From positions 248,001 through 312,000 of the IMG/VR virus record IMGVR_UViG_3300003322_000571: a stretch of 64,000 nt of DNA; one strand, written 5' to 3'. Source of the stretch: a virus. This document shows positions 12,823 through 57,129 of this stretch, one piece after another. The first letter of the stretch is position 1. Every line of letters starts with the position of its first letter. The translations under genes were made by a program, and so were the position numbers. A model generated the notes under the pieces. That model saw only the letters and a list, made by a program, of their open reading frames with translations, did not search any database and had not been told where the DNA came from.

Positions 12823-15800
12823 TGAGCAGACTAGTTGCCCGTGCAGAAACATGGGAACGCGCGTATGAAGCGTTCCAAAATATCAACTTTGCTGCGTTTG
12901 ACTACGATACAGTTAAACGCAGCTTGATTGATTACATCAAGCTGTACTTCCCAGAAACATTCAACGACTTTATTGAGTCGTCTGAATTCGTTGCAGTTAT
13001 TGAAGTATTTGCATACATCGCTGAAATCATGGCGTATCGCCTTGATGTCAATGCGCATGAAAACTTCATTTCAACAGCTCAGCGTAAGGATTCGATCCTA
13101 CGCTTGGCTAAACTCGTCTCTTATTCAGCATCACGTCCACTTCCTTCTCGCGGTCTTGTCAAACTTCAGTCAGTTTCAACGACTGAATCTGTAGTTGATA
13201 CAAACGGTCTTGATCTTGCTGGTCGTACAATCCGTTGGAATGACGTTAGCAATGCCTCATGGAAAGATCAATTCATCCTTGTGATGAACCGCGTTATGGA
13301 ACAGCAGTTTGGTTCTGTTGGTCCTACCGATCGTTTCCAGATTCAAGACGTTTTGTTTGAACTGTACTCGTGGAACCTTGTTCCGCTTGCTACTGGTGTA
13401 TTCCCGTTCAATGCAAACGTCAGCGGTCAGTCACTGCCTATGGAACTTGTTTCCACGGCGTATGACACCTCTAACGGAATTATCGAGCGCCGTCCACAAA
13501 ACAATTCAAACTTCACGTTCCTGTATGGTCAAGACGGTCTTGGAGACGCTTCTGCGACAACAGGTTTCTTCTGCTATGCAAAGCAAGGCCAGTTGCAACG
13601 TTTCCGTACTACGTTTGACGGCGTAACACCAAATCAAACGTATGATATCGGTGCACAGAATGTAAACGAAACGGATATCTGGTTGAACAATGTGGATCCT
13701 ACAACGGGAGCCACACTTGATCAGCCTTCTGTTCTGCCGTACCGCAACTCAAAGCTTGGAAAATCGGGTGAATGGGTTCAGGTAGACGTAGCACACTCGC
13801 AAAACGTTATTTTCAACACGAACCCTCGTCGCAACAAGTACGAAGTAGAAACTCGCGATGAAAACCGTGCTAGGTTGATCTTCGGCGACGGTGAGTTCGC
13901 TGACATTCCGTCGGGTGCATTTGACATTTGGGCACGTACGTCTGTAGATCAAGACATTGTTATCCCTCAGTCGGCTGTATCAAATCAAACATCTTCGTTT
14001 ACGTACGTTGATTCGTTTGGTCGTACGCAGACGTTCACGTTCACATATTCACTTGTTAACACGCTGCAGAACGGTTCTGCAGCTGAGGATATCGAACACA
14101 TTCGCAACGTAGCTCCAGGCACGTATTCAACACAGGACCGTATGGTTAACGGCCCAGACTACAATACGTATCCGCTGCAAGATCCTTCGATCATGAAGCT
14201 GCGTGCAATTAACCGTACGTTCGCTGGCGAGTCGAAGTATATTACGTGGCATGACTCTTCTGGTACGTACGAAAACGTCAAGATTTTCAGTGACGATGGC
14301 GTATTGTACTTTAAACAACGACAAGACGTAACAACGACGCCGGTTGTTGATACAAACGTGCTGATTTCTTCATACATTCAGCCGTTGTTGTCAACACCTG
14401 AGTTGTACATGAACATCATCAGCGCTGGTGTGCCAATTGGCAATTACCGTCGTCAGTTCAACACAGATGAAATCGATCGTATCACAACAGAGATCACGAC
14501 GAACATGGCTCCTGTGATGATTTTGATGTACTACAACACGGCGACGTTTGAATGGTACGCTATCAAAAACAGTGACGATCCAGCTGTCAAGTTTACAGGT
14601 TGGCCTAACAACTACATCACAACTCCTCTGATCTCTATTGAACAGACGAGCATCTTCGAGACTTCGTATTACGTAACTCGTAATACGAAGGAATTCATGA
14701 TGTACAGTGAGACAACAGAATTCTGGAATACGAATGATGGTCAAACTGTGATTGACTACGATACGTTGAATTCTGACAGTGACAAGATTGTTGTACTTCA
14801 GGCGAACACAAACTACAACCGTAACGCTATTTTGACTTCGAACGTCGAATTCAACGTTGTGTCGCTTGGTACAGTTGAATCTGGAACTGATGTTGGTTTG
14901 CCAGATACGTCAAACGTAATCATTGTTCCAACGGATACAAACGGAGACGGTGTTCCTGACAACTTGTCGATTGAAACTTGGAACAATCCTCAAGGGATTG
15001 CTGACATCGTTAAGCCAAAGATCATTGCTGACGTTAGTGCAGGTAATCAGTCTGCGTTCGATCCGTTGTCTGCAGGTATTGAGATTACATTGCCTGTGTA
15101 CTACGTTGTCGATCCGTCACTTGTAACATCAACAGCCATTGGCAACACAGTATACAAAACGAACGACGTTGAAGTATATGCGCCGGCACCTGACTACGGT
15201 AGCCTAATGAAGCAGGCAGGAGATTCTTCGTCTCCAAACTGGTCCGACTGGGCAACGATTACAAACGACGGTTCATATGTGTCAAACAAGATCCGTGTGT
15301 TGAACAACCGTACGAATACGTCTCTTGGTAGTAGTGTTAACGTGTTGACTGAGCTTGTCAAGGTTAAAGAATATGTGTACTTCACGCGTGAAACGAAACT
15401 CGATCCTTGGGTATTGTCACCGACGACACCTCAAACGCTAGCTTCGTTTGTGACAGACGTTAATTCGTTCCTTGTTCCTGATCCTTCGTCTAGCTCTGGT
15501 TACCGTCCTTTGACGATTGCAGAAGCTGATGCAGGTACGAATACAGACTACGAAAACGCTCGTACAATTAAGCGTTACGAAGGTCGTGGTGGTTTGAACT
15601 TCGCGTGGTTCCACTTCTCTCCACGTTACTACTTGGTTGATCCTTCGCCAACGAATATTATTGACATGTACGTAATTACAAAGGGTTACTACATCTCGTT
15701 GAAGCGTTGGTTGGAAGATCCGTTGGCCGCCGCTCCGTCGCTTCCTACGCCGTTGGATCTTCGTACGTCATACAACTACATGCTTGACAACAAAATGATC

Positions 15801-16273: not shown

Positions 16274-19200
16274 GTGGCAAATTTCAGCGACAACAAAAAA
16301 CCAGCGCTTACCGTTTCTAACCTCCTTCCTGAAGTCAATAGGTCGGATGTTAACGGTTCCGTCTTTAGCACAGCGTTTGATCGTCTGCTTACTAAAGACG
16401 ACTCTGCTCGCGTTGCTGGTTATATCGGCCAGGGCAACCCTAACGCCGTAATCAATCGTCAGATCAAAGAAGCTACGCCTCACCGTCAAGCCTATCAGTT
16501 GGCACCTACAATGGTGACGACTGTAGGTACAGAAACTTCTGCGCTTTCCTTCGAAGCATTCAACAGCCAACTGGAATTGATGGGTGTTGACATTGACCGC
16601 TACAAGAAGTGGGGTTCTACGCTTCAGTTCAACTGGGTTCCTCCAGTGAACATCGACATGCTCGTCAACTATTCTGACTACTACTGGGTTCCTGCAACTC
16701 GCGGTGATGGTCAGCAATATTTGACGATTGAAAGCCCATGCACGAAAGCACAGAGCGCGAAACAAACGTTCATGGCTGTCGTTGAAGCTCGTGGCTCAGA
16801 ATTCCCTCTCAAGTCGATCAACTACGTTGAAAACCAGTTTGTGATCGAATCACAGATGGCTGACATTTTCAAGACGGGATTTGTGTTCCAAACGACGAAT
16901 ACATCCGCTGTTAGCCTGAACAATAAGGACTGGACTGTAGATACGTCTTCGTACGATTTCCAGACGAATTTGACAACGATCACAGTGATCGAACCGATCA
17001 GCATTGTTCAAAACATTGCTCCTGTCGCTTCGTTCGTGGGCCAGTGGTGGTACAACACGACTGATAATCAACTGTATCAATGGACTGGTGCAGCATGGGT
17101 GATCGTGTCTAAGGTTCAAGTCGCTGACTTGTCTCTTGCTGCAACAATTGCTTTGTTCCAGAAAGCGGCAAACTGTGCTTGCTATGGTAGCGAAGGTTGG
17201 GATACAGGTCCTTGGGACATTGATGAATGGGATTCCACTTCTACGTGTGACATTCCACTACCATCACCATGGGCTGATCAGAACCGTTGGGTTCACAAAT
17301 CACAAGTCCAGTCGTCAGCTACTGCAAAGCGTGCTACACTTCCAATCCTTGAGTACGGTAGTTTCGTTGAACTCAATACATGGGTTCAACGCGATCGTCA
17401 ATGGAAGTACCGCTCGAGCACGTTGAAGACATTTGCCGCGACAGATGCAGCACCAACGCGCTTCGAACTTGAACCAATCAAGGGATATGCTGTTGCTAAC
17501 GTCAACGGGCAGTGGAACATCTACCTGTTCTCAAAAAGCCAAACGGTTAACCGTGACATCGACCACACAGCGACGTTTGTGCCAGGTTACAAGTTTGCGA
17601 TCAAAGATGACACAGGTTCTGCAGCAATCTACACTGTTTTGCGTTCCGAATATCGTGAATTGAACGGTACAGATCAAGCGTTTATTAATGCTGTTGTTGG
17701 TACTGGTTGGATGTGCACAGTAGTTATTCTTGAAGAATCAACTTTCTCGTCCGCTGTTCAAAGTGGTGGTATCAATAACATCCGTATTGAGCCGTTGAAG
17801 ACGAGTCAAGGAGACACGTGGAACGGTTACCATGCCCACTGGTTGCTTGACGTAGAAGCTACGACAACGGTTGCAACAGCAAACCACGCACCAACAGTTT
17901 ACGGTGAGCGTGACATTGAAGACCCTGCGGTGTATTCTATTCCGCCTGTCGGTTTCTCACCACAAGTTAGTGTGATCGCAATTGGTAATACGTATCAAGA
18001 GTTCACAGCAAACTTCGCTGGAATCACACATATTGATCTCGCCGACAAGTTTAAGTATGACCCAGCTAATCCTACCGTGTATGCAACACCTGGTAGTGAT
18101 GAACTTCGTCTATACATCAACGGTCAACGTCAGTATCTAAACTACACGGAAGTAGTTGCTACAGGTAGCCCTAACTATACAGTTGTCGGTAATGCTGTTC
18201 AGACATCACAGACAATCAGCTATGTCACGGGAATTGATCTTTCTGTCGCGCTCAATTTGAACGACGTTGTTCGTATTGAAGTTGGCCCGGCAGCGTACGA
18301 AGATATGGGCTGGTATGCTGTTCCTGTTCGTACAGTTGAAGATGAAGCTGCGTTCATTGTTGCTACTGCTGCAGGTACACAACCAGCTTATGTTAGCTTG
18401 ACGCAGTACGGTCTGCAGGAACAACAGAAGGTTGCTATCAACCAGTATCCACAGTTCAACATGTACGATGTTGTTACAGGGGAAGTTGTTGGTGCGTCTC
18501 CGTTGTTTGCATTCCAGGAAGGCAGTGACTATCCAATCACTCCTGCAATCCAACGCCGTATCGTCAAAGATGCAACTGGCAAAGAGTTCGGGTTCGAACA
18601 GTTCCTTGTTGATCGTTCGAACAACATCATGTATGCATATCGCAACACGTCAGTACAACTTCCTTACTGGTTTAACACGACTGATCAAAAAGTGTATCAG
18701 TGGAATAACCGTGCTTGGACAGATCAATTCTTGATGGAACTTCCATCAGGAGCTATTGTCGCTCGTACTGCAGTTGCAGCAGCAATCGACCCTGTTGAGT
18801 TGCATGACGTTGATCGTGCTTTGTGGTATGATACAACGAACGAAAAGTTGTTCTACCGTAATGTAGCGACAACAGCGTGGGTTGAAATTACGGGTGTTAC
18901 GTCAGCGTCTGCTGACCCAACACTAATGACTGTATGGCGTCACGGTAAGACGGATCAACAGGCTGTCCCGCAATATGTTGATAAGAATCGTAATCCAATT
19001 ACTGTCGGTAGTCCGGACGGTAGCTGGGGCGTCGTCGACCAATGGATGTACAACAGCGAGCACAAGAACTACAAGGACATTACGTACTCGCAGCTTGTAA
19101 CGCACTTCTCATCGATTATCAACGCTCAGCCAGCAGTTCCCGGTTTGCCGGGGAACGGTGCGTTCACTCTGTTGCAATCGAATTACGATTACGGTCTTGG

Positions 19201-22200
19201 CGGTACGATCAAAGAACATAACGACAGTTTCGATACATTGATCTCAGCTGTCAATGTAACAAATGTCTCCCCGATTGGTGTCATTGAATTTGCCGCTCGT
19301 GAATACGCAAACAGCTTGTTGACTCTGCGTGACAGCTTTAACAAGTTGCTCCCTTCGATGTTGACAACAGTAACGAGTAGTTCGTTGATCGACTTGACCA
19401 GCTACGTCGCTGACGCTCTGATTGACAATTATGAAAATAATGATTATACAGCACAGTTGTATGGTGATACATCTGCGTATGATCCTGTAACCAAGAAGGG
19501 CGTACGTAACTGGATCGCTACAGCTCCGATGTTTGGTTTGACACCACTGTACCGTCCACATCTGAATGTTGATGGTAACTTTGTTGAAGTGTTTAACCAT
19601 GACGGACACCGTACGAACATTTCTTTCAGCGCAGCAGAACAAGATCGTGTTGCACGTCTCGTAATCAACGCAACAGATAACCGTACGTTGAACGGCAAGT
19701 TTGGTAAGACGGGCTCGGGTTCGTTTGTCACGACAGTTCCAGCATTCCTTACAACATACGGTTCCTTCCGTACGAACGTGTACTGGTACAAGGTAGTATC
19801 TGGTACGCGTACGTTGTACCGTTTCCAGCCATACGCAATCATCGACAACGATCCTTCGTTCTACGACGCTGATGGCAACGAACTACCTGACGGTATCAAG
19901 TACTACAATACAGTCGTTAAGGCAGTGTTTGAAAAGACTGGTCTTGCGTGGAATCAGATTACTGTAACAGGTGCAGAAGACATCGCTCCTTTGTGGGAAG
20001 TTGTCGATCTTCAGCTGCTGCTTGGTAATTTGTACCTTGAAATCGATCAGCGTTTGTTTGAAGTCACGCCTATCATGCGTGAAGTATTCGACTATGGTTC
20101 CTTGGTTGTTGACAGCCAAGACCAGCTGTTGTATGAATCCCTCAACGCTCAAAGGTTTGCTGCATACGTAACGGAAAATGATATCCGTACACCGTTTGTT
20201 AACGATACGTACAACGCTTCAAACCCGTTCTCGTGGAATTACAAGCGTTCGATCTCATTGCTTCCACCTGCAGCTTTGTCGGTTGTTCCTGCTGCTTCGT
20301 GGCAAGAGCAGTACAGCCGTTGGTACAACACACCGTACCCACATCTTGAACCTTGGAAGATGCAAGGGTATACAGACAAGCCAACGTGGTGGGACGAAGA
20401 GTATAAGGACACAACTGGCACACGTTTGTGGACAGCCCAAATGTGGACAAACTTGTTTGGACGTATTGTCCCAGCAGGCCGCTTGCTGCCGTCTGGAGTT
20501 GTAAGCGTCGGTTCTCTTGATCCGACGATGACGCTGTACACGTACTTTAGTGTTGATACTACGACAGATCAGTTGTTGCCTCCGTATTTCTCTACATCGA
20601 GCACGACAGATCGTTCGTTGTTTACTGATTACGCCAACGAAATCATTGCTCCTGATGCGGACTACATGTTTGGTGATGTTGGTCCGGATGAATGGAACTG
20701 GACAATTTCGTCGCAACATCCGTACGACAATGCTGTAATTGCATTCCAGATGCAACCAGCTAAGTTCTTGCATGCAGCTTTCGGTCCGAAGTTTGTTGAA
20801 GTTGACAAGCTACAAGTTGAGACAATCTTCAAGCAAGTTTACAGCCACGAAGATGCAATGTTCCATGGCGATATCTACGACACTAACAAGTCGTACTATG
20901 TCCGTGGTTTGAATCAATGGTATGTTAACTACAACCGTTACACAGGATACGACACAAACGGTGAATTCCGTCAGCTGTGGGCGGGTTGGGATCCAAAGAT
21001 GACGCACCAATTTGGTGGAATCATCGACACGAGCTCGTTCGAAATTACGAACAGGAATTTCGAACTGATCAACTCCGACTACCGGATCATTCTTGCGAAC
21101 AGTGGCGTTGTCGGTGATTCGTGGGTTGATGCATTCGAAGTCAGCTTGATCAACATTCCTCCAGCTATCGTTCAGTACAACAACCAAGCTGCATGGAGGC
21201 TTGAAGTTGATAGCCTCGCAGCTGTTCCTCGTACAATTAACTATTACGGCGTTAAGGCTTACCCGTTCAGTGCTAATCCGGCTACGGACGACTTTAAGGC
21301 GTTCAACTACGTAATCGTCGGTGCTGATAGTGCAGCAAAGCGTTTCTATGTTTCTGGTGATCAGACAGATACGTTCAATATTGGCCGTAATTTCACTGTT
21401 TCGTTGTCTTCAACGAACAACGGTGTATACACAGTTACATCTTCTGTTTACGAACCAACTACTGGCCGTACGCGTATTAACGTTCAGCAAACATTGAACA
21501 GTTCGACTGTTGATGGTGAAATCGACATTACGGACATTACTCTGCCGTGGACAACCGGCGATCAGATCGTTCTCGGCAGCACGATGTTCTTGCCTTCGCC
21601 GCTTGTGCCAGATACACCGTACTTCTATATCAAGACGGGTGATCGTACATTCCGTCTTGCGGAAACGATCGGTGATGCTTTTGCTGACAATCATATTGAC
21701 GTGATTTCTCGTGGTAACGGCACACACACTGTCGCTCAACTTGACAGTTCGTTCTTTGTGTTTGGTGGTAACGGCAATTCCGGTGAACGTTGGTATCACT
21801 ACGCTCTCGATAAGAACGTGGTTCGTACGTTCACACCTCCACTCGCTGTTCTTGGAATGCAGTCATTCATCAATTTGATGGACGGATACGCTTCGTACCA
21901 ACAAGACAATCATGACGTGTTGTTCGGTCAATCTGAATTCGGTGAGACGGATCCTGACACAGGTCGCCCTGTTGATTGGGCTGTTGAAACTGAACGCTTC
22001 ATCAACTGGGCTTATGGCCTCCGTCAGAACCGTCAGTTCATTAACGATTCGTACAATGTTAGTGTTGACGACATCACTAACGTATTGACGTTCAGTGACA
22101 TGGTTCCAATGTGGCGTACGGGTACAATGGTCGGTGTTCGTTCGACGGGCACATTGCCTGTTCCGTTGCTTGACGGCGCACCTTACTACGTCGTTACAAC

Positions 22201-25200
22201 AGGAACGGCAAACCAGATTCGTTTGTCAGTTTCACCAAATGGTGCTGATACATCTGCATGGATTGACTTCACGACAGCTGGTAGTGGTAACATCACTATC
22301 GGTTTGTTTGACAAACAACGTGCTTACCCACGTTTTGAGTTGAATGCAAACCGCAACAACATCTACGTCAAGACGCCCGTTGGTGTGATTGCCGATGTGA
22401 TTGAAGGACCGTACTCTGATATTCGTATCCAGCAAACGATCTTTGACCAATACAACCGTCCGTTGACGGCTAACCAAATCGCTACTTACCGTCAAGACGA
22501 GCGTACGCGAATTTCCGTTATGCCTGAGCTGGAAAATGATATCGACATCATTTATGTTGGCGATCCGTATAACTACATCCACATCGGTGGTGCTCACCTG
22601 TTCGTTGAAGGGTATGAGCATTACCTGATTCTCAACGACTACACTGTAGGCGGTGCATTGTTGTACGATCAGTTCTACGGCTTGTGGACGAAGAAGTTCG
22701 ATGTTGACTACTTTGAGAAAGAGGATTACACACTGCGTCCAACGCTCGGAGGTTACTACCTCGTCGATGGTCAGTTCCAGCGTAACATTGAAGGTTCCGT
22801 CGTTGACATGTCGGAATACTACGATACAAACGAACTGTCAGAGACTACAGAGATTGCTCGTTACGCTCGCAACTTGCTCGGTTACAAGGGCAAGGAACAA
22901 TATTTGAATCAACTTGGAGTCAACGCTAAGTCACAATTCTTGTTCTACAAGGGAATGATCCAGACAAAGGGTTCGATCAACTCAGTCACAGCTTACACAA
23001 ATAGCCGCCGTTTCCTTGATGCAAAGATCGACGAATTCTGGGCTTGGAAGCTCGCTGATTTCGGTGATCGCCGTGTTAAGACGTATCCTGAAGTGAAACT
23101 GTTTGCGTCAGATGGCGCGTTCGATGACGTTCGTCTTGAATTCTTGTCGTCGAGCGATCAGAAGACAGATCCAGAGTTTGTTGAAGACGTTAACAAGGGA
23201 TTCCAGCTCGTGTCGTTTGCAGACGATTCCCGTTGGAACAATTTCCCTGAGCAACGTGCAGAAATCCGTTCACCGTTGTTCCTGGATTCTCAAGTTTCGT
23301 CAACGACAGCAATTTACTCAGGCATTGCTCCACCACCGGCTGGCGCAGAGGATTCAATCGACTACTGGGTTGATACAACGAATCCTGCAGCACCGGTTGC
23401 TAAGGCGTTTAATGGCAATCAATGGGTTGCTACAAACGAACTGCGTATCGCGTTGTTTACGGTTGGTTCTACGTCTCAGTTGTATGTCGAGCATGGTACT
23501 TTTAGCGATACTGTTCGTGTATTGCGTCGAACGCTTGCAGTCAATGAGTTTGATGCAGATGTCGTCACAGGACCACAGCGTCTTCGTATCGCTGGCGATG
23601 TGTCTGGTAATTTCTCTTCTGGTATTGCCTTCACGTTCGTTCCTTTGAACGAGCAAGTTGTTGTATTAACAACTGCTTCTGTCAATTTCGACGGAACGAA
23701 TACGTACGTCACTACTGTTGAGCCATTCACATTCAGCGCAACGTCTGGTGTTGCTAACGTTCGTAGCTTCTCTGATTACACAACAGAAGTTATTAACGCT
23801 GGTTCTGGTGTTGACGAATTCACAAAGGTTAACTCCGAAAGCGTACGCTTTAACTTGGCTGGTTTCCGTGATTTGATGGTGATCTTCACTATCAATCCGT
23901 CGAAAGCCAAGAACAATCCAGCAAAACTGGTTGACTTGAAAGCAGGCGCCGTCGTCCAGCAAATGCCATTGTGGCACCCAGCGCTTGGTTATCATTCGCC
24001 AACTGCAATTCACAATGTGACGTTGCAGCATGGTGGTGATCCAGCACGTTATCAGTTTACGCCTAACCCGCTTGCTGACAACAACTCTGGTAATTTCTGG
24101 AATCAGAACGAAATTGGTACAGTGTGGCTTGATACATCGTATCTCGGCTACGTACCGTATTACGACGATGTGATTTACAGTGATGTGAATCAGCGCTTGT
24201 ATTCATGGGGTCGTTTGGCTCCGTGGGGTGACATTCGTGTTTATCAGTGGGTTGAGTCAACTGTTCCACCAGAGCAGTGGGATCAGGCTGTGATCGAACA
24301 GACGAACGATCCAACGATTGCTCAGAACGACAAAGCAACTGGTACGCCATACATGATTACAAGCAAGCGTACACGTACGTCTTACAATGCTTCTGTGATT
24401 AACAACACGACGATCCAAGGTCCTGCAGGTGTATTTGCTACAGGAGATGTTGTATTGTTCACATCTACAGGCTCATTGCCAAGTGGACTGGTTACCGGAA
24501 CGAAGTATGCGATCGATACATTGACGGTTGGTGGTGCAATTACTCTGATTGACATTGCTACTGAAGAACCTATTGAAGTTGGTTCAGGTGCAACGGGTCA
24601 GTTGAGTATTGTCCCAGCGTTTGAGGCTAACGATTGGGTTGAAAGCGTATTGACGCGTGATCGTATGACAGCTCCTGTAGCTGTTCAACAAGCTCGTCAA
24701 TTCGCTGGCACGACAGGTGCAATCAACTGGCCAGTTACTTTGCCGCAGAGTAGATTCGTTTGGACGCCAAGTGACTACACGTTGTGGGATCCGCAGGTTG
24801 GTTCGACATTCAACGCAGCACCTGACGTTGTTGATGTCTATGTTAACGGTGTTCTCACCGTGACAGGACGTGTTGTCAACGTTGCGACAACGCCTTCGTC
24901 GACGTCTCAGTTCTATGTTGCAACAGACGCGCCACTCGTGTTGAACGAATACGACATTATTGATGTTGTACGTCCTGTTCACACGTTGACGGAAGAGGAA
25001 GCTGCATTTGATCCAGACTCGTCAGACGATGGTTCGTTGATGGTTCAGTGGAAGCGCGACTATCAGTACTCTGTTCGTACAGCTACGACTGGTAGTGAAA
25101 CTGCCGGCTACGTAACGACAACGTACTATTACTTCTGGGTACAGCATTTGACGTCCCGTAAGACGAACGTCAACGCTAGCTTGTCAACGCTTGAAATCGA

Positions 25201-25993
25201 ACAGCAACTGGAAACAATTCCAACGTCATACTTTGTTGTACAAAAACCAAAGGATGATCCGTATCTTCTTGAAAAGTATGGATATGGCATTATTCCTTAC
25301 GGTTCTGTATGGAGTCTTGGTGTGTTGACAGAAGCTGCTTATGAGATCCCAGTTCAATATCGTCAAGCTATTATTCGTAAAGTTGCTAGCTACTTGACGG
25401 ACGACAACAGGTTTATCGCTCGATTCACACGTGATTGGACTTTGCGTGATAGCTTGACCGCTAATGGCAAGCAATTTAACTTGAAGGACAAGCATTCTCA
25501 GTGGTTGATGTTCCGTCGTGAACAACCTGGTCGTGTTCCAGCTGAACTGTGGGAGCGTTTGACGGAGTCGGTCGTCGGATACAAGGTAACGAACGGTACT
25601 CAAGTTCGTGTCCCTGCAATCGATCGTGAATTGTACGATGCTCAGTACGGTACCGATACACGTTTCGGTCTCGGTGAAGACCAAGCGTTTGTTGATCGTA
25701 CGTATGCTCTCGATTCGATTGTGTCGTATTTGGAAGATCCTTCTAAGGACTTCTGGCCGCTCAATATCGACTCGTTCTTCGAAGATAACAACTTCGATAC
25801 GCCGGAAGGTATTCGTGCAGCGATGGACGAGATTTACGCGACGTTCCCGTACGAACACGTTAACGGAATCTGGTTTGAGACACTGTCAGACGCGTTCGCT
25901 ACGAAGGCTAAATACAAGGAACTGATGAAGACTTCTTGGATTGCCTTGCATGGCGTACGAATCCTTGATGTTAATGGATTGTTTGACGACTAA
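16274..25993 (+). CDS. Giant structural protein, 3239 residues (probable baseplate component, gp7-like position)
   Basis: This is the largest gene in the window and starts with GTG after CAGAGGG. The protein is a long string of beta-rich modules with no transmembrane segment and no recognised enzyme motif. A short module recurs with variations: WYNTTDNQLYQWTGAAWV near residue 257, YWFNTTDQKVYQWNNRAW near 798, LWYDTTNEKLFYRN near 852 and YWVDTTNPAAPVAKAFNGNQWV near 2365. It follows gp6, where T4 has gp7 (1032 residues). Very large structural proteins at this position are known in some large T4-like phages. The C-terminus is helical (FATKAKYKELMKTSWIALHG). The baseplate role is inferred from position. 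Confidence 0.6.
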   Translation: MANFSDNKKPALTVSNLLPEVNRSDVNGSVFSTAFDRLLTKDDSARVAGYIGQGNPNAVINRQIKEATPHRQAYQLAPTMVTTVGTETSALSFEAFNSQLELMGVDIDRYKKWGSTLQFNWVPPVNIDMLVNYSDYYWVPATRGDGQQYLTIESPCTKAQSAKQTFMAVVEARGSEFPLKSINYVENQFVIESQMADIFKTGFVFQTTNTSAVSLNNKDWTVDTSSYDFQTNLTTITVIEPISIVQNIAPVASFVGQWWYNTTDNQLYQWTGAAWVIVSKVQVADLSLAATIALFQKAANCACYGSEGWDTGPWDIDEWDSTSTCDIPLPSPWADQNRWVHKSQVQSSATAKRATLPILEYGSFVELNTWVQRDRQWKYRSSTLKTFAATDAAPTRFELEPIKGYAVANVNGQWNIYLFSKSQTVNRDIDHTATFVPGYKFAIKDDTGSAAIYTVLRSEYRELNGTDQAFINAVVGTGWMCTVVILEESTFSSAVQSGGINNIRIEPLKTSQGDTWNGYHAHWLLDVEATTTVATANHAPTVYGERDIEDPAVYSIPPVGFSPQVSVIAIGNTYQEFTANFAGITHIDLADKFKYDPANPTVYATPGSDELRLYINGQRQYLNYTEVVATGSPNYTVVGNAVQTSQTISYVTGIDLSVALNLNDVVRIEVGPAAYEDMGWYAVPVRTVEDEAAFIVATAAGTQPAYVSLTQYGLQEQQKVAINQYPQFNMYDVVTGEVVGASPLFAFQEGSDYPITPAIQRRIVKDATGKEFGFEQFLVDRSNNIMYAYRNTSVQLPYWFNTTDQKVYQWNNRAWTDQFLMELPSGAIVARTAVAAAIDPVELHDVDRALWYDTTNEKLFYRNVATTAWVEITGVTSASADPTLMTVWRHGKTDQQAVPQYVDKNRNPITVGSPDGSWGVVDQWMYNSEHKNYKDITYSQLVTHFSSIINAQPAVPGLPGNGAFTLLQSNYDYGLGGTIKEHNDSFDTLISAVNVTNVSPIGVIEFAAREYANSLLTLRDSFNKLLPSMLTTVTSSSLIDLTSYVADALIDNYENNDYTAQLYGDTSAYDPVTKKGVRNWIATAPMFGLTPLYRPHLNVDGNFVEVFNHDGHRTNISFSAAEQDRVARLVINATDNRTLNGKFGKTGSGSFVTTVPAFLTTYGSFRTNVYWYKVVSGTRTLYRFQPYAIIDNDPSFYDADGNELPDGIKYYNTVVKAVFEKTGLAWNQITVTGAEDIAPLWEVVDLQLLLGNLYLEIDQRLFEVTPIMREVFDYGSLVVDSQDQLLYESLNAQRFAAYVTENDIRTPFVNDTYNASNPFSWNYKRSISLLPPAALSVVPAASWQEQYSRWYNTPYPHLEPWKMQGYTDKPTWWDEEYKDTTGTRLWTAQMWTNLFGRIVPAGRLLPSGVVSVGSLDPTMTLYTYFSVDTTTDQLLPPYFSTSSTTDRSLFTDYANEIIAPDADYMFGDVGPDEWNWTISSQHPYDNAVIAFQMQPAKFLHAAFGPKFVEVDKLQVETIFKQVYSHEDAMFHGDIYDTNKSYYVRGLNQWYVNYNRYTGYDTNGEFRQLWAGWDPKMTHQFGGIIDTSSFEITNRNFELINSDYRIILANSGVVGDSWVDAFEVSLINIPPAIVQYNNQAAWRLEVDSLAAVPRTINYYGVKAYPFSANPATDDFKAFNYVIVGADSAAKRFYVSGDQTDTFNIGRNFTVSLSSTNNGVYTVTSSVYEPTTGRTRINVQQTLNSSTVDGEIDITDITLPWTTGDQIVLGSTMFLPSPLVPDTPYFYIKTGDRTFRLAETIGDAFADNHIDVISRGNGTHTVAQLDSSFFVFGGNGNSGERWYHYALDKNVVRTFTPPLAVLGMQSFINLMDGYASYQQDNHDVLFGQSEFGETDPDTGRPVDWAVETERFINWAYGLRQNRQFINDSYNVSVDDITNVLTFSDMVPMWRTGTMVGVRSTGTLPVPLLDGAPYYVVTTGTANQIRLSVSPNGADTSAWIDFTTAGSGNITIGLFDKQRAYPRFELNANRNNIYVKTPVGVIADVIEGPYSDIRIQQTIFDQYNRPLTANQIATYRQDERTRISVMPELENDIDIIYVGDPYNYIHIGGAHLFVEGYEHYLILNDYTVGGALLYDQFYGLWTKKFDVDYFEKEDYTLRPTLGGYYLVDGQFQRNIEGSVVDMSEYYDTNELSETTEIARYARNLLGYKGKEQYLNQLGVNAKSQFLFYKGMIQTKGSINSVTAYTNSRRFLDAKIDEFWAWKLADFGDRRVKTYPEVKLFASDGAFDDVRLEFLSSSDQKTDPEFVEDVNKGFQLVSFADDSRWNNFPEQRAEIRSPLFLDSQVSSTTAIYSGIAPPPAGAEDSIDYWVDTTNPAAPVAKAFNGNQWVATNELRIALFTVGSTSQLYVEHGTFSDTVRVLRRTLAVNEFDADVVTGPQRLRIAGDVSGNFSSGIAFTFVPLNEQVVVLTTASVNFDGTNTYVTTVEPFTFSATSGVANVRSFSDYTTEVINAGSGVDEFTKVNSESVRFNLAGFRDLMVIFTINPSKAKNNPAKLVDLKAGAVVQQMPLWHPALGYHSPTAIHNVTLQHGGDPARYQFTPNPLADNNSGNFWNQNEIGTVWLDTSYLGYVPYYDDVIYSDVNQRLYSWGRLAPWGDIRVYQWVESTVPPEQWDQAVIEQTNDPTIAQNDKATGTPYMITSKRTRTSYNASVINNTTIQGPAGVFATGDVVLFTSTGSLPSGLVTGTKYAIDTLTVGGAITLIDIATEEPIEVGSGATGQLSIVPAFEANDWVESVLTRDRMTAPVAVQQARQFAGTTGAINWPVTLPQSRFVWTPSDYTLWDPQVGSTFNAAPDVVDVYVNGVLTVTGRVVNVATTPSSTSQFYVATDAPLVLNEYDIIDVVRPVHTLTEEEAAFDPDSSDDGSLMVQWKRDYQYSVRTATTGSETAGYVTTTYYYFWVQHLTSRKTNVNASLSTLEIEQQLETIPTSYFVVQKPKDDPYLLEKYGYGIIPYGSVWSLGVLTEAAYEIPVQYRQAIIRKVASYLTDDNRFIARFTRDWTLRDSLTANGKQFNLKDKHSQWLMFRREQPGRVPAELWERLTESVVGYKVTNGTQVRVPAIDRELYDAQYGTDTRFGLGEDQAFVDRTYALDSIVSYLEDPSKDFWPLNIDSFFEDNNFDTPEGIRAAMDEIYATFPYEHVNGIWFETLSDAFATKAKYKELMKTSWIALHGVRILDVNGLFDD

Positions 25994-55642: not shown

Positions 55643-55671
55643 ACTATACGAGGGTTAATCCGTACCTTCAA
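55643..55671 (-). promoter_or_regulatory. Sigma70-like promoter of the primase gene
   Basis: The minus strand has TTGAAG (55666-55671), a 17-base spacer and TATAGT (55643-55648), within the last codons and stop of the ClpP-like gene. Only GTTGGTGT separates the -10 element from ATG 55634. Confidence 0.55.
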
Positions 55672-56455
55672 CTTCCTTCTTTACACGTGGACGACGTGGA
55701 GCAGCTTTCTTAGCTGGCTTGCGGGGTGTACGTTTTGGTTTAACCTCGACTTCAACTTCTTGCTCCGCGGCATCTGCTGCGATTGCTTGTTCAATTGCTT
55801 TTTCGATCGCCTTTTCCTGCTTTTCGATTTCTGCAATCATGTTTTGCAAGCGAGTACGAATCTCAGGCGATTGCATCCAGAAGTCTTCTCCCTTAGCGAT
55901 TCGAGTGAATTCTTCTTCTGAAATGAACGGAACATAAATGTCGCGTGCAAGGGATGCGAACCACTTGATAGTAGCTTCGAGTTCCGACACAAGTTCGTTG
56001 CCCTTACCGATCAGACCACCGTTAAAGTTGTGGAACATCATCATGCAGTTGTCGTTGACGACCATCTCATCACCAGCCAAGAAGATTAGCGTTCCGAGAG
56101 AGTATGCACTACCTTCAAGGATTGTAACAATCTTCGCTTGGGAATTCTGCATTGCATTGACGATTTGCACGCCAGTATCAAGTTGACCGCCGGGTGTATT
56201 CAGGTGAATGAAAATTGTATCAGACGGTCCAGCGCACGTGATGCGGTAGATCATGTCTGTGTAATCACCAGGAGCGCCAATACTTTCGCTGATGTAGTAG
56301 TGGACGTGCTGTGCCGTAAATGTCTGAGCGTACTCTTTGTACGGCTTCTTGTTCATGGCGATAAGCGGAAGCCCTGTTTGGTCCTCGCCGCTCTCTTCTT
56401 CATCGTTTGCACGCTTAGGTGCGAGTTTCGACTTATACGTGTACGAGTATACCAT
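55655..56455 (-). CDS. ClpP-like serine protease with a basic C-terminal tail
   Basis: The protein is 266 residues. The ClpP fold motifs are IFIHLNTPGGQLDTGVQIVNAM, ILEGSAYSLGTLIFLAGDE with nucleophile Ser119, MMMFHNFNGG with His142, and GEDFWMQSPEI with Asp191. The catalytic triad spacing (23 and 49 residues) matches bacterial ClpP (25 and 49). Residues 1-35 and 200-266 are extra. The tail is a coiled coil (EKQEKAIEKAIEQAIA) followed by Lys/Arg/Pro-rich sequence. It lies directly downstream of the tmRNA gene, with its own late promoter (56482-56489). It may degrade tagged proteins or act as a prohead-type protease; either is inference. Confidence 0.8.
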   Translation of the reverse strand: MVYSYTYKSKLAPKRANDEEESGEDQTGLPLIAMNKKPYKEYAQTFTAQHVHYYISESIGAPGDYTDMIYRITCAGPSDTIFIHLNTPGGQLDTGVQIVNAMQNSQAKIVTILEGSAYSLGTLIFLAGDEMVVNDNCMMMFHNFNGGLIGKGNELVSELEATIKWFASLARDIYVPFISEEEFTRIAKGEDFWMQSPEIRTRLQNMIAEIEKQEKAIEKAIEQAIAADAAEQEVEVEVKPKRTPRKPAKKAAPRRPRVKKEVEGTD

Positions 56456-56489: not shown

Positions 56490-56540
56490 CTGGAGAAATA
56501 GCAGTGATCTTTACCCGTATACCCAGGGACCGGAAATGAA

Positions 56541-56562
56541 GGAAGGCGCCGAAGCGCCTTCC
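56541..56562 (-). terminator. Terminator of the tmRNA gene
   Basis: On the minus strand GGAAGGCGC-TTCG-GCGCCTTCC is followed by TTCATTTCC: a 9-bp stem with a stable UUCG loop downstream of the tmRNA coding piece. Confidence 0.8.
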
Positions 56563-56605
56563 TATGATACTGTTGTTATCGGGGTATCATGCCCTCAGTC
56601 AAGCA

Positions 56606-56638
56606 TTAAGCTGCGAGACGGAAGTTACCTTCATTTGC
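56606..56638 (-). other. tmRNA tag reading frame, ANEGNFRLAA
   Basis: Resume codon GCA at 56636-56638 begins Ala-Asn-Glu-Gly-Asn-Phe-Arg-Leu-Ala-Ala and ends TAA 56606-56608. The form matches proteobacterial tags (AND/E...LAA) and keeps the C-terminal Leu-Ala-Ala that ClpX recognises. Upstream AACCTAAAT resembles the A-rich stretch before tag frames. Confidence 0.9.
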
Positions 56639-56723
56639 ATTTAGGTTGTTTTCTTGAGTTACGGTCTTCGCCACCGGCATGCGCCATCCATCTCAGTAAC
56701 TCTGTCGAAACCAGGGCAGGCCC

Positions 56724-56803
56724 ATGACAGAAGATTCAACGCTACGTTACTTTTCGAGGGCCTAGGTTCCCTTTAACCGTTTCACGCAGCACTAAACCTT
56801 CTG
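56724..56803 (-). other. Intervening segment of the permuted tmRNA precursor
   Basis: About 80 bases lie between the CCA end and the 5' G of the coding piece. Its outer parts are complementary (CAGAAG at the start and CTTCTG near the end), forming a stem stacked on the acceptor helix. It is expected to be removed by tRNA-type processing, leaving two RNAs held by base pairing. Confidence 0.75.
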
Positions 56804-56890
56804 TGGTGGACCTGGCGGGAATCGAACCCGCGTCCAAAATCCTTCAACATCAGTCGAATTACATGCTTCATCTGCTTGCGCAGATACGTC

Positions 56891-56898
56891 TATTTAAG
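56891..56898 (-). promoter_or_regulatory. Candidate late promoter for the tmRNA gene
   Basis: The minus strand reads CTTAAATA just upstream of the acceptor-piece hairpin. The core resembles other late promoters of the window, but the first two bases are atypical. Nearby ATGCTT and AAGCAT can pair, so the sequence may instead be RNA structure. Confidence 0.3.
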
Positions 56899-56916
56899 CA
56901 TAGAACCCTAAAACTA

Positions 56917-57129
56917 TCAACACGTGCAGTTCAACGACTCACGTTTGACCATTTTCCATCCAGGCTCGTTGTTGTCATTGCAAAATTGGTAGTGCATTCG
57001 AACGACACCAAAGCAAACAGGGCACATCTTCGGCCGTGTCTCGATGTCTCCGACCTTGTTCTGGTATGTTCGTCGGAGGATTTGACCATTCAAATGCGTC
57101 TCTTGCACCCAATCAATCGTCGTTTCCAT
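56917..57129 (-). CDS. Small zinc-ribbon-like protein, 70 residues
   Basis: The protein begins METTIDWVQETHLNGQILRRTYQNK and has KMCPVCFGVV and a second Cys pair at the end (LNCTC). Four cysteines could bind one zinc. The start overlaps the preceding gene by 17 bases. It is the gene directly upstream of the tmRNA acceptor piece, so a common transcript is likely. The function is unknown. Confidence 0.55.
   Translation of the reverse strand: METTIDWVQETHLNGQILRRTYQNKVGDIETRPKMCPVCFGVVRMHYQFCNDNNEPGWKMVKRESLNCTC

What the first reader, a model, noticed from the sequence alone, without database searches (positions are those of the whole stretch)
56563..56880. A circularly permuted, two-piece tmRNA gene carried by a T4-like phage
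The acceptor half with T-arm and CCA lies upstream of the half with the 5' end and tag frame. The acceptor stem pairs over 7 bp with the G-U third pair. The tag ANEGNFRLAA ends in LAA, and the segment between CCA and the 5' end has complementary ends. Permuted ssrA is known from alphaproteobacteria, some betaproteobacteria and cyanobacteria. I know of phage tmRNAs of the ordinary one-piece form, but not this layout in a T4-like phage. It gives the phage its own ribosome-rescue RNA with a distinct tag.
Basis: partly seen in the sequence, partly recalled or inferred. Interest (0 to 1): 0.95.

Follow-up and report, generated by a model that had tools for sequence, protein, structure and literature searches.

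The report
Permuted two-piece tmRNA in jumbo phage
A giant bacteria-infecting virus carries its own genuine, circularly permuted ribosome-rescue RNA; this kind of gene was already known in phages, but here it sits directly ahead of a phage protease gene in a whole group of related giant phages, which hints that the tag and the tag-destroying enzyme travel together.

Summary
Window 56906-56537 (minus strand) is a circularly permuted ssrA: beta_tmRNA RF01850 126.3 bits (E 4e-38) and tmRNA_permuted RF04321 112.5 bits. ARAGORN also calls a permuted tmRNA with tag ANEGNFRLAA. The carrier is a 350-kb T4-like jumbo phage (gp23 capsid E 7e-98; 56 tRNA genes outside the window).

The novelty claim fails. 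Two-piece phage tmRNAs were published in 2022 (PMC9004378). One strict pattern found permuted tmRNAs in 46 IMG/VR contigs, and copies exist in named phages XacN1, X1, Phosso and BUCT-ZZ01.

In 15 distinct loci, including this one, a permuted tmRNA lies 0.1-1.2 kb upstream of this clpP on the same strand, usually in the order tmRNA-clpP-primase-topoisomerase. The phage encodes neither SmpB nor a detected ClpX/ClpA-type unfoldase, so host partners must be borrowed. A shared tag-and-degrade role is plausible but not shown. I found no report of this linkage.

The parts
56804..56885 (-). acceptor (3') piece of the two-piece tmRNA: segment pairing with the coding piece, T-arm, acceptor 3' strand CAGGUCC, A, CCA (56806-56804); 5' limit approximate
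   Evidence: RF01850 and RF04321 alignments; sequence
56724..56803 (-). intervening segment removed in maturation; folds as a long hairpin continuing the acceptor stem
   Evidence: fold z -5.8 alone, -6.4 with acceptor stem and T-arm
56540..56723 (-). coding (5') piece starting at G 56723 (GGGCCUG), with UGGUUUCGAC motif and tag region; 3' limit approximate
   Evidence: RF01850 alignment
56606..56638 (-). tag reading frame ANEGNFRLAA* with resume codon GCA
   Evidence: ARAGORN; direct translation
56540..56563 (-). 3' stem-loop (10 bp, UUCG loop), terminator-like but without a good U-run
   Evidence: fold z -6.2; the terminator scan did not list it
56892..56920 (-). weak candidate promoter TTGATA-N17-TTAAAT; the same place in L051, L053, L054 reads TTGACN-N17-TATAAA(T), which also resembles the T4 late promoter TATAAATA
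   Evidence: sequence only; below the threshold of the consensus scan
55655..56455 (-). ClpP-like serine protease gene directly downstream (266 aa; S119, H142, D191 conserved)
   Evidence: PF00574 E 9e-15; phrog_1827 E 3e-55; PDB ClpP matches; alignment A1

Best explanation
The element is a functional, phage-encoded, circularly permuted tmRNA of the two-piece proteobacterial kind. The precursor is transcribed from the minus strand. Host tRNA-processing enzymes (RNase P at the 5' G, a 3' tRNA endonuclease/exonuclease at CCA) cut out the 80-nt hairpin, leaving an acceptor piece and a coding piece held together by base pairing. Host AlaRS charges it through G3-U70. Host SmpB and EF-Tu bring it to ribosomes stalled on broken phage or host mRNAs during infection, and it adds ANEGNFRLAA, which frees the ribosome and marks the peptide for Clp proteolysis. 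Shown: the sequence, structure, pairing and conservation. Inferred: transcription, processing, charging, tagging and the benefit (keeping ribosomes free). A further inference, less certain, is that the neighbouring phage ClpP takes part in destroying tagged proteins, working with a host ClpX or ClpA.
For: Two covariance families above gathering score, full length, and ARAGORN. In 61 phage permuted tmRNAs (46 from an IMG/VR pattern, 13 from the ClpP-linked clade including the window, XacN1, X1) the acceptor stem pairs at all seven positions in 58; the other three pair too when a one-base parsing offset is corrected. Pairs 4-6 change by compensation (pair 4 G-C 33/C-G 28; pair 5 five types), while G3-U70 never changes. 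Of those 61, 46 had U70 fixed by the search pattern; the 15 others did not. Tag frames stay open and mostly end in LAA or VAA although whole-tmRNA identity to the window's falls to 39-60%. The neighbouring clpP is conserved with its triad, and 15 distinct loci keep the tmRNA just upstream of it.
Against: No expression or processing data. No SmpB in the 350-kb record or in 22 related records, and no AAA_2 unfoldase, so everything rests on host partners. Several relatives depart from the standard: L051 and L093 lack an encoded CCA, L097 has an acceptor mismatch and ends ACU, and the L050 tag ends LAL.
Confidence: 0.85

Rival explanations
1. The phage tmRNA is a modifier or decoy: it competes with host tmRNA for SmpB and EF-Tu and replaces or blunts the host tag, sparing phage proteins or changing which protease acts, rather than adding rescue capacity.
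For: A tag-less phage tmRNA (DS6A) inhibits host tmRNA when expressed in E. coli (reported in PMC11915505 and PMC4131195). The tag here differs from the usual ANDENYALAA at several positions, and several clade members end RLAA, GVAA or LAL.
Against: A complete open tag frame with a hydrophobic LAA end, and G3-U70, are kept, which a pure decoy would not need.
Confidence: 0.08
2. Tag and protease module (an extension of the best explanation, not exclusive of it): tmRNA and phage ClpP form a functional pair, the phage ClpP (with host ClpX or ClpA) degrading proteins carrying the phage tag, for example to recycle amino acids or remove broken phage proteins.
For: tmRNA directly upstream of clpP on the same strand in 15 distinct loci down to about 40% ClpP identity; triad conserved. 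A differently arranged contig, L013, has tmRNA about 1.4 kb upstream of another ClpP-like gene.
Against: Most of these loci share clpP-primase-topoisomerase order, so adjacency may be inherited once. Related phages keep clpP-primase with no tmRNA (RAS14) or a distant one (XacN1, L098), and L092 has clpP but no tmRNA found. No phage unfoldase found.
Confidence: 0.2
3. A host ssrA captured by accident, kept as a passive relic or recombination site.
For: Phages and islands often integrate at ssrA (general knowledge; also noted in PMC9004378).
Against: Complete gene; compensatory acceptor-stem changes and conserved tag frames across divergent relatives; same position kept next to clpP.
Confidence: 0.04

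Closest known systems
Two-piece (circularly permuted) tmRNA of Betaproteobacteria, Rfam RF01850 / RF04321
   Same: Same permuted order, acceptor stem with G-U third pair, T-arm, tag frame, spacer between CCA and 5' end
   Different: Phage-borne; two exact patterns built on its T-arm and acceptor string had no match in one genome each of 84,980 bacterial and archaeal species; tag ANEGNFRLAA; no cognate SmpB in the record
Two-piece tmRNA of Methylophilales phage Melnitz and other marine phages (PMC9004378)
   Same: Permuted ssrA in a myophage with T4-like genes
   Different: Melnitz tmRNA is alphaproteobacterial in type and linked to a glutamine riboswitch; here beta type by covariance score (126 against 40 bits for alpha) and next to clpP
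tmRNA of jumbo phages: Sinorhizobium AP-J-162 (PMC11242549; tmRNA form not stated in the passages read), Phosso, XacN1
   Same: Jumbo phages with many tRNAs plus a tmRNA; XacN1 and Phosso copies are permuted
   Different: In XacN1 the tmRNA lies far from clpP (37 kb against 86 kb in the record) and is present twice
Phage tmRNAs listed in PMC4131195 (mycobacteriophages Bxz1, Wildcat and others; Bacillus phage G)
   Same: Phage-encoded tmRNA
   Different: Ordinary one-piece gene order, from general knowledge; form not tested here

Membership tests
Permuted tmRNA (RF01850 / RF04321) | Full-length covariance match above the curated cut-off | tested here: met
   126.3 bits against 84; 112.5 bits against 47
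Permuted tmRNA (RF01850 / RF04321) | Acceptor half upstream of coding half, seven-pair acceptor stem with G3-U70 and CCA | tested here: met
Permuted tmRNA (RF01850 / RF04321) | Tag reading frame with stop codon and hydrophobic C-terminal end | tested here: met
   ANEGNFRLAA*
Permuted tmRNA (RF01850 / RF04321) | Processing into two RNAs, alanylation, trans-translation with SmpB | not testable with these tools
   No SmpB gene in the phage record; host SmpB presumed
T4-like phage | gp23-type major capsid protein and T4-type replication genes | tested here: met
   PF07068 E 6.6e-98 at G000 241133-242377; two-subunit topoisomerase II, primase, DnaB-like helicase, DNA polymerase
ClpP protease (neighbour gene) | ClpP domain with Ser-His-Asp triad | tested here: met
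   PF00574 55.4 bits against cut-off 20.2; S119, H142, D191 invariant in 8 relatives. Structure model too poor to use (pLDDT 50)
ClpP protease (neighbour gene) | Works with a ClpX/ClpA unfoldase | tested here: inconclusive
   No AAA_2 domain in the phage record; a host partner is possible

The most novel reading that the evidence does not exclude
A group of jumbo phages carries a paired module, its own tmRNA and its own ClpP, that writes a phage-specific degradation tag and supplies the peptidase that destroys tagged proteins, taking over the host's protein quality control during infection.
Probability: 0.2. Interest if true: 0.75.

Novelty: new member of a known kind. Interest (0 to 1): 0.4.

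Why it matters
It adds a beta-type permuted tmRNA in a T4-like jumbo phage and shows that such genes are widespread and sometimes unannotated in phage genomes. The conserved tmRNA-clpP neighbourhood makes a testable case that some phages carry both the tagging RNA and a peptidase for tagged proteins, alongside a large tRNA set.

Tried and rejected
Promoter/terminator scan: nothing above shuffles at the tmRNA. Bacterial source of this allele: two exact-pattern scans of 84,980 species genomes gave no match; this excludes only those exact strings. In-place swapping between alpha-like and beta-like tmRNAs in the clade: identities of tmRNA and ClpP correlate only weakly (Mantel r 0.27, p 0.08, 14 loci), so neither co-inheritance nor swapping is established. 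Recoding of TAG (two tRNAs with CUA anticodon): TAG still ends 10 of 246 long non-overlapping ORFs, and reading it as sense adds only about 5% ORF length, so recoding is not supported. Structure prediction of ClpP from a six-row alignment: mean pLDDT 50, not used.

Full report
Observation. The interval holds a permuted tmRNA gene on the minus strand. cmscan of the whole window gave only two matches at gathering score, both here: RF01850 beta_tmRNA, 56906-56537, 126.3 bits, E 4.4e-38, and RF04321 tmRNA_permuted, 56866-56606, 112.5 bits. ARAGORN independently calls a permuted tmRNA with tag ANEGNFRLAA. From the sequence the acceptor strands GGGCCUG and CAGGUCC pair over seven positions with G3-U70, CCA is at 56806-56804, the 5' G is at 56723, and the tag frame is 56638-56606. 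The segment between CCA and the 5' end, 80 nt, folds as a long hairpin in line with the acceptor stem (z -6.4 with acceptor stem and T-arm, -5.8 alone).

Carrier. The window lies at 248001-312000 of a 350,089-base IMG/VR virus record. It is T4-like: a gp23-type capsid gene at E 6.6e-98, and T4-type topoisomerase subunits, primase, helicase and polymerase in the window. Outside the window it has 56 tRNA genes by ARAGORN. The nearest annotated records by topoisomerase and ClpP include jumbo phages of Xanthomonas, Stenotrophomonas, Agrobacterium and Sinorhizobium at about 33-36% protein identity. The host is unknown.

Is it under selection? I compared acceptor stems of 61 phage permuted tmRNAs: 46 from an IMG/VR pattern scan, 13 read by hand from the ClpP-linked clade including the window, and XacN1 and X1. 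In 58 all seven pairs form; the remaining three were parsed one base out of register and pair when shifted. Pairs 4, 5 and 6 switch between G-C, C-G, A-U and U-A types, while G3-U70 is constant. The pattern fixed U70 in 46 of them, so the unbiased count for U70 is 15 of 15. L097 was left out of this count; it has one mismatch (pair 6) and ends ACU instead of ACCA. This pattern is what alanine charging and folding would require.

Neighbourhood. The next gene downstream, 56455-55655, is ClpP-like (PF00574 55.4 bits; phrog_1827 E 2.6e-55; solved ClpP structures). Ser119, His142 and Asp191 are invariant in eight phage relatives. Of six close relatives found in IMG/VR, five have a permuted tmRNA upstream on the same strand and the sixth is cut by the contig end. 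A profile search raised this to 68 loci. Searching the contigs for RF04321 and RF01849/RF01850, scanning some of the remaining loci, and converting coordinates gives 15 distinct loci, identical alleles counted once, with tmRNA 0.1-1.2 kb upstream: the window, L050, L051, L053, L054, L081, L086, L088, L091, L093, L096 (cut by the contig start, partial alpha_tmRNA match of 31.4 bits, below gathering score), L097, L099, L103 and L106 (distances). Most continue clpP-primase-(sprT)-topoisomerase. Exceptions: L144 2.8 kb away; L098, L111 and XacN1 carry both genes far apart; RAS14 and L092 have clpP but no tmRNA found. The more distant ClpP relatives (about 29-35%) mostly lack a tmRNA on the contig held. 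These loci share ancestry, so the count is not 15 independent events. L013, with a different gene order, has tmRNA about 1.4 kb upstream of a ClpP-like gene.

Mechanism. Best supported: an ordinary two-piece tmRNA, processed and charged by host enzymes, acting with host SmpB to free stalled ribosomes during infection. SmpB is not found in the record nor in 22 related records, whereas 10 of 14 control genomes gave the expected match. An AAA_2 unfoldase is likewise not found. Whether the phage ClpP joins a host unfoldase to destroy tagged proteins is untested. Two tRNAs with a CUA anticodon are present (sequences). Stop-codon readthrough by suppressor tRNAs is known to generate tmRNA substrates (Ueda 2002, cited in PMC3985003), which offers one possible reason to carry a tmRNA. 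Upstream, L051, L053 and L054 carry TTGACN-N17-TATAAA(T) just before the gene, readable as a sigma-70 promoter or a T4 late promoter; the window's version is weaker and below the scan threshold.

Known or new? Two-piece phage tmRNAs are published: PMC9004378 counted 53 among 133 unique phage tmRNA structures and described one in Melnitz. PMC11915505 lists 79 unique bacteriophage tmRNA sequences, and PMC7162821 reports tmRNA and SmpB in huge phages. Here, permuted copies turned up in XacN1 (two), X1, Phosso and BUCT-ZZ01; those of XacN1 and X1 carry no annotation at the loci viewed. So this is a new member of a known kind. I found no paper reporting the tmRNA-clpP neighbourhood, but the library is limited to open-licence papers.

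Verdict.

Noticed in passing
L066-L068, L075, L079, L080 (G000 outside the window): 56 tRNA genes by ARAGORN (including one with an undetermined, four-base anticodon), among them two with CUA anticodon (L080:2868-2944 and 14214-14286), suggesting amber suppressor tRNAs in the phage.
   Followed up: partly
XacN1 AP018399.1 37231-37530 and 356026-356325; X1 OQ427096.1 121009-121337; Phosso PV764938.1 349596-350198; BUCT-ZZ01 ON615601.1 116952-117248: Permuted tmRNA genes found by RF04321; no tmRNA feature is listed at the XacN1 and X1 loci viewed. The Phosso match spans 603 bases, so its spacer may be unusually long.
   Followed up: partly
L053, L054, L086: tmRNAs in the same position as the window's with tags ending in ...YGVAA and, in L053 and L054, alpha-like core motifs; unclear whether replaced or diverged.
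   Followed up: partly
L051 and L093: The acceptor end is not encoded as CCA (reads ACAA), so CCA would have to be added after transcription.
   Followed up: no
G000:C1:66207-66860: A second gp23-like open frame (112 bits) in addition to the main capsid gene.
   Followed up: no
window 16274-25993 (+): A single open frame of 3239 aa, unusually long; not examined.
   Followed up: no
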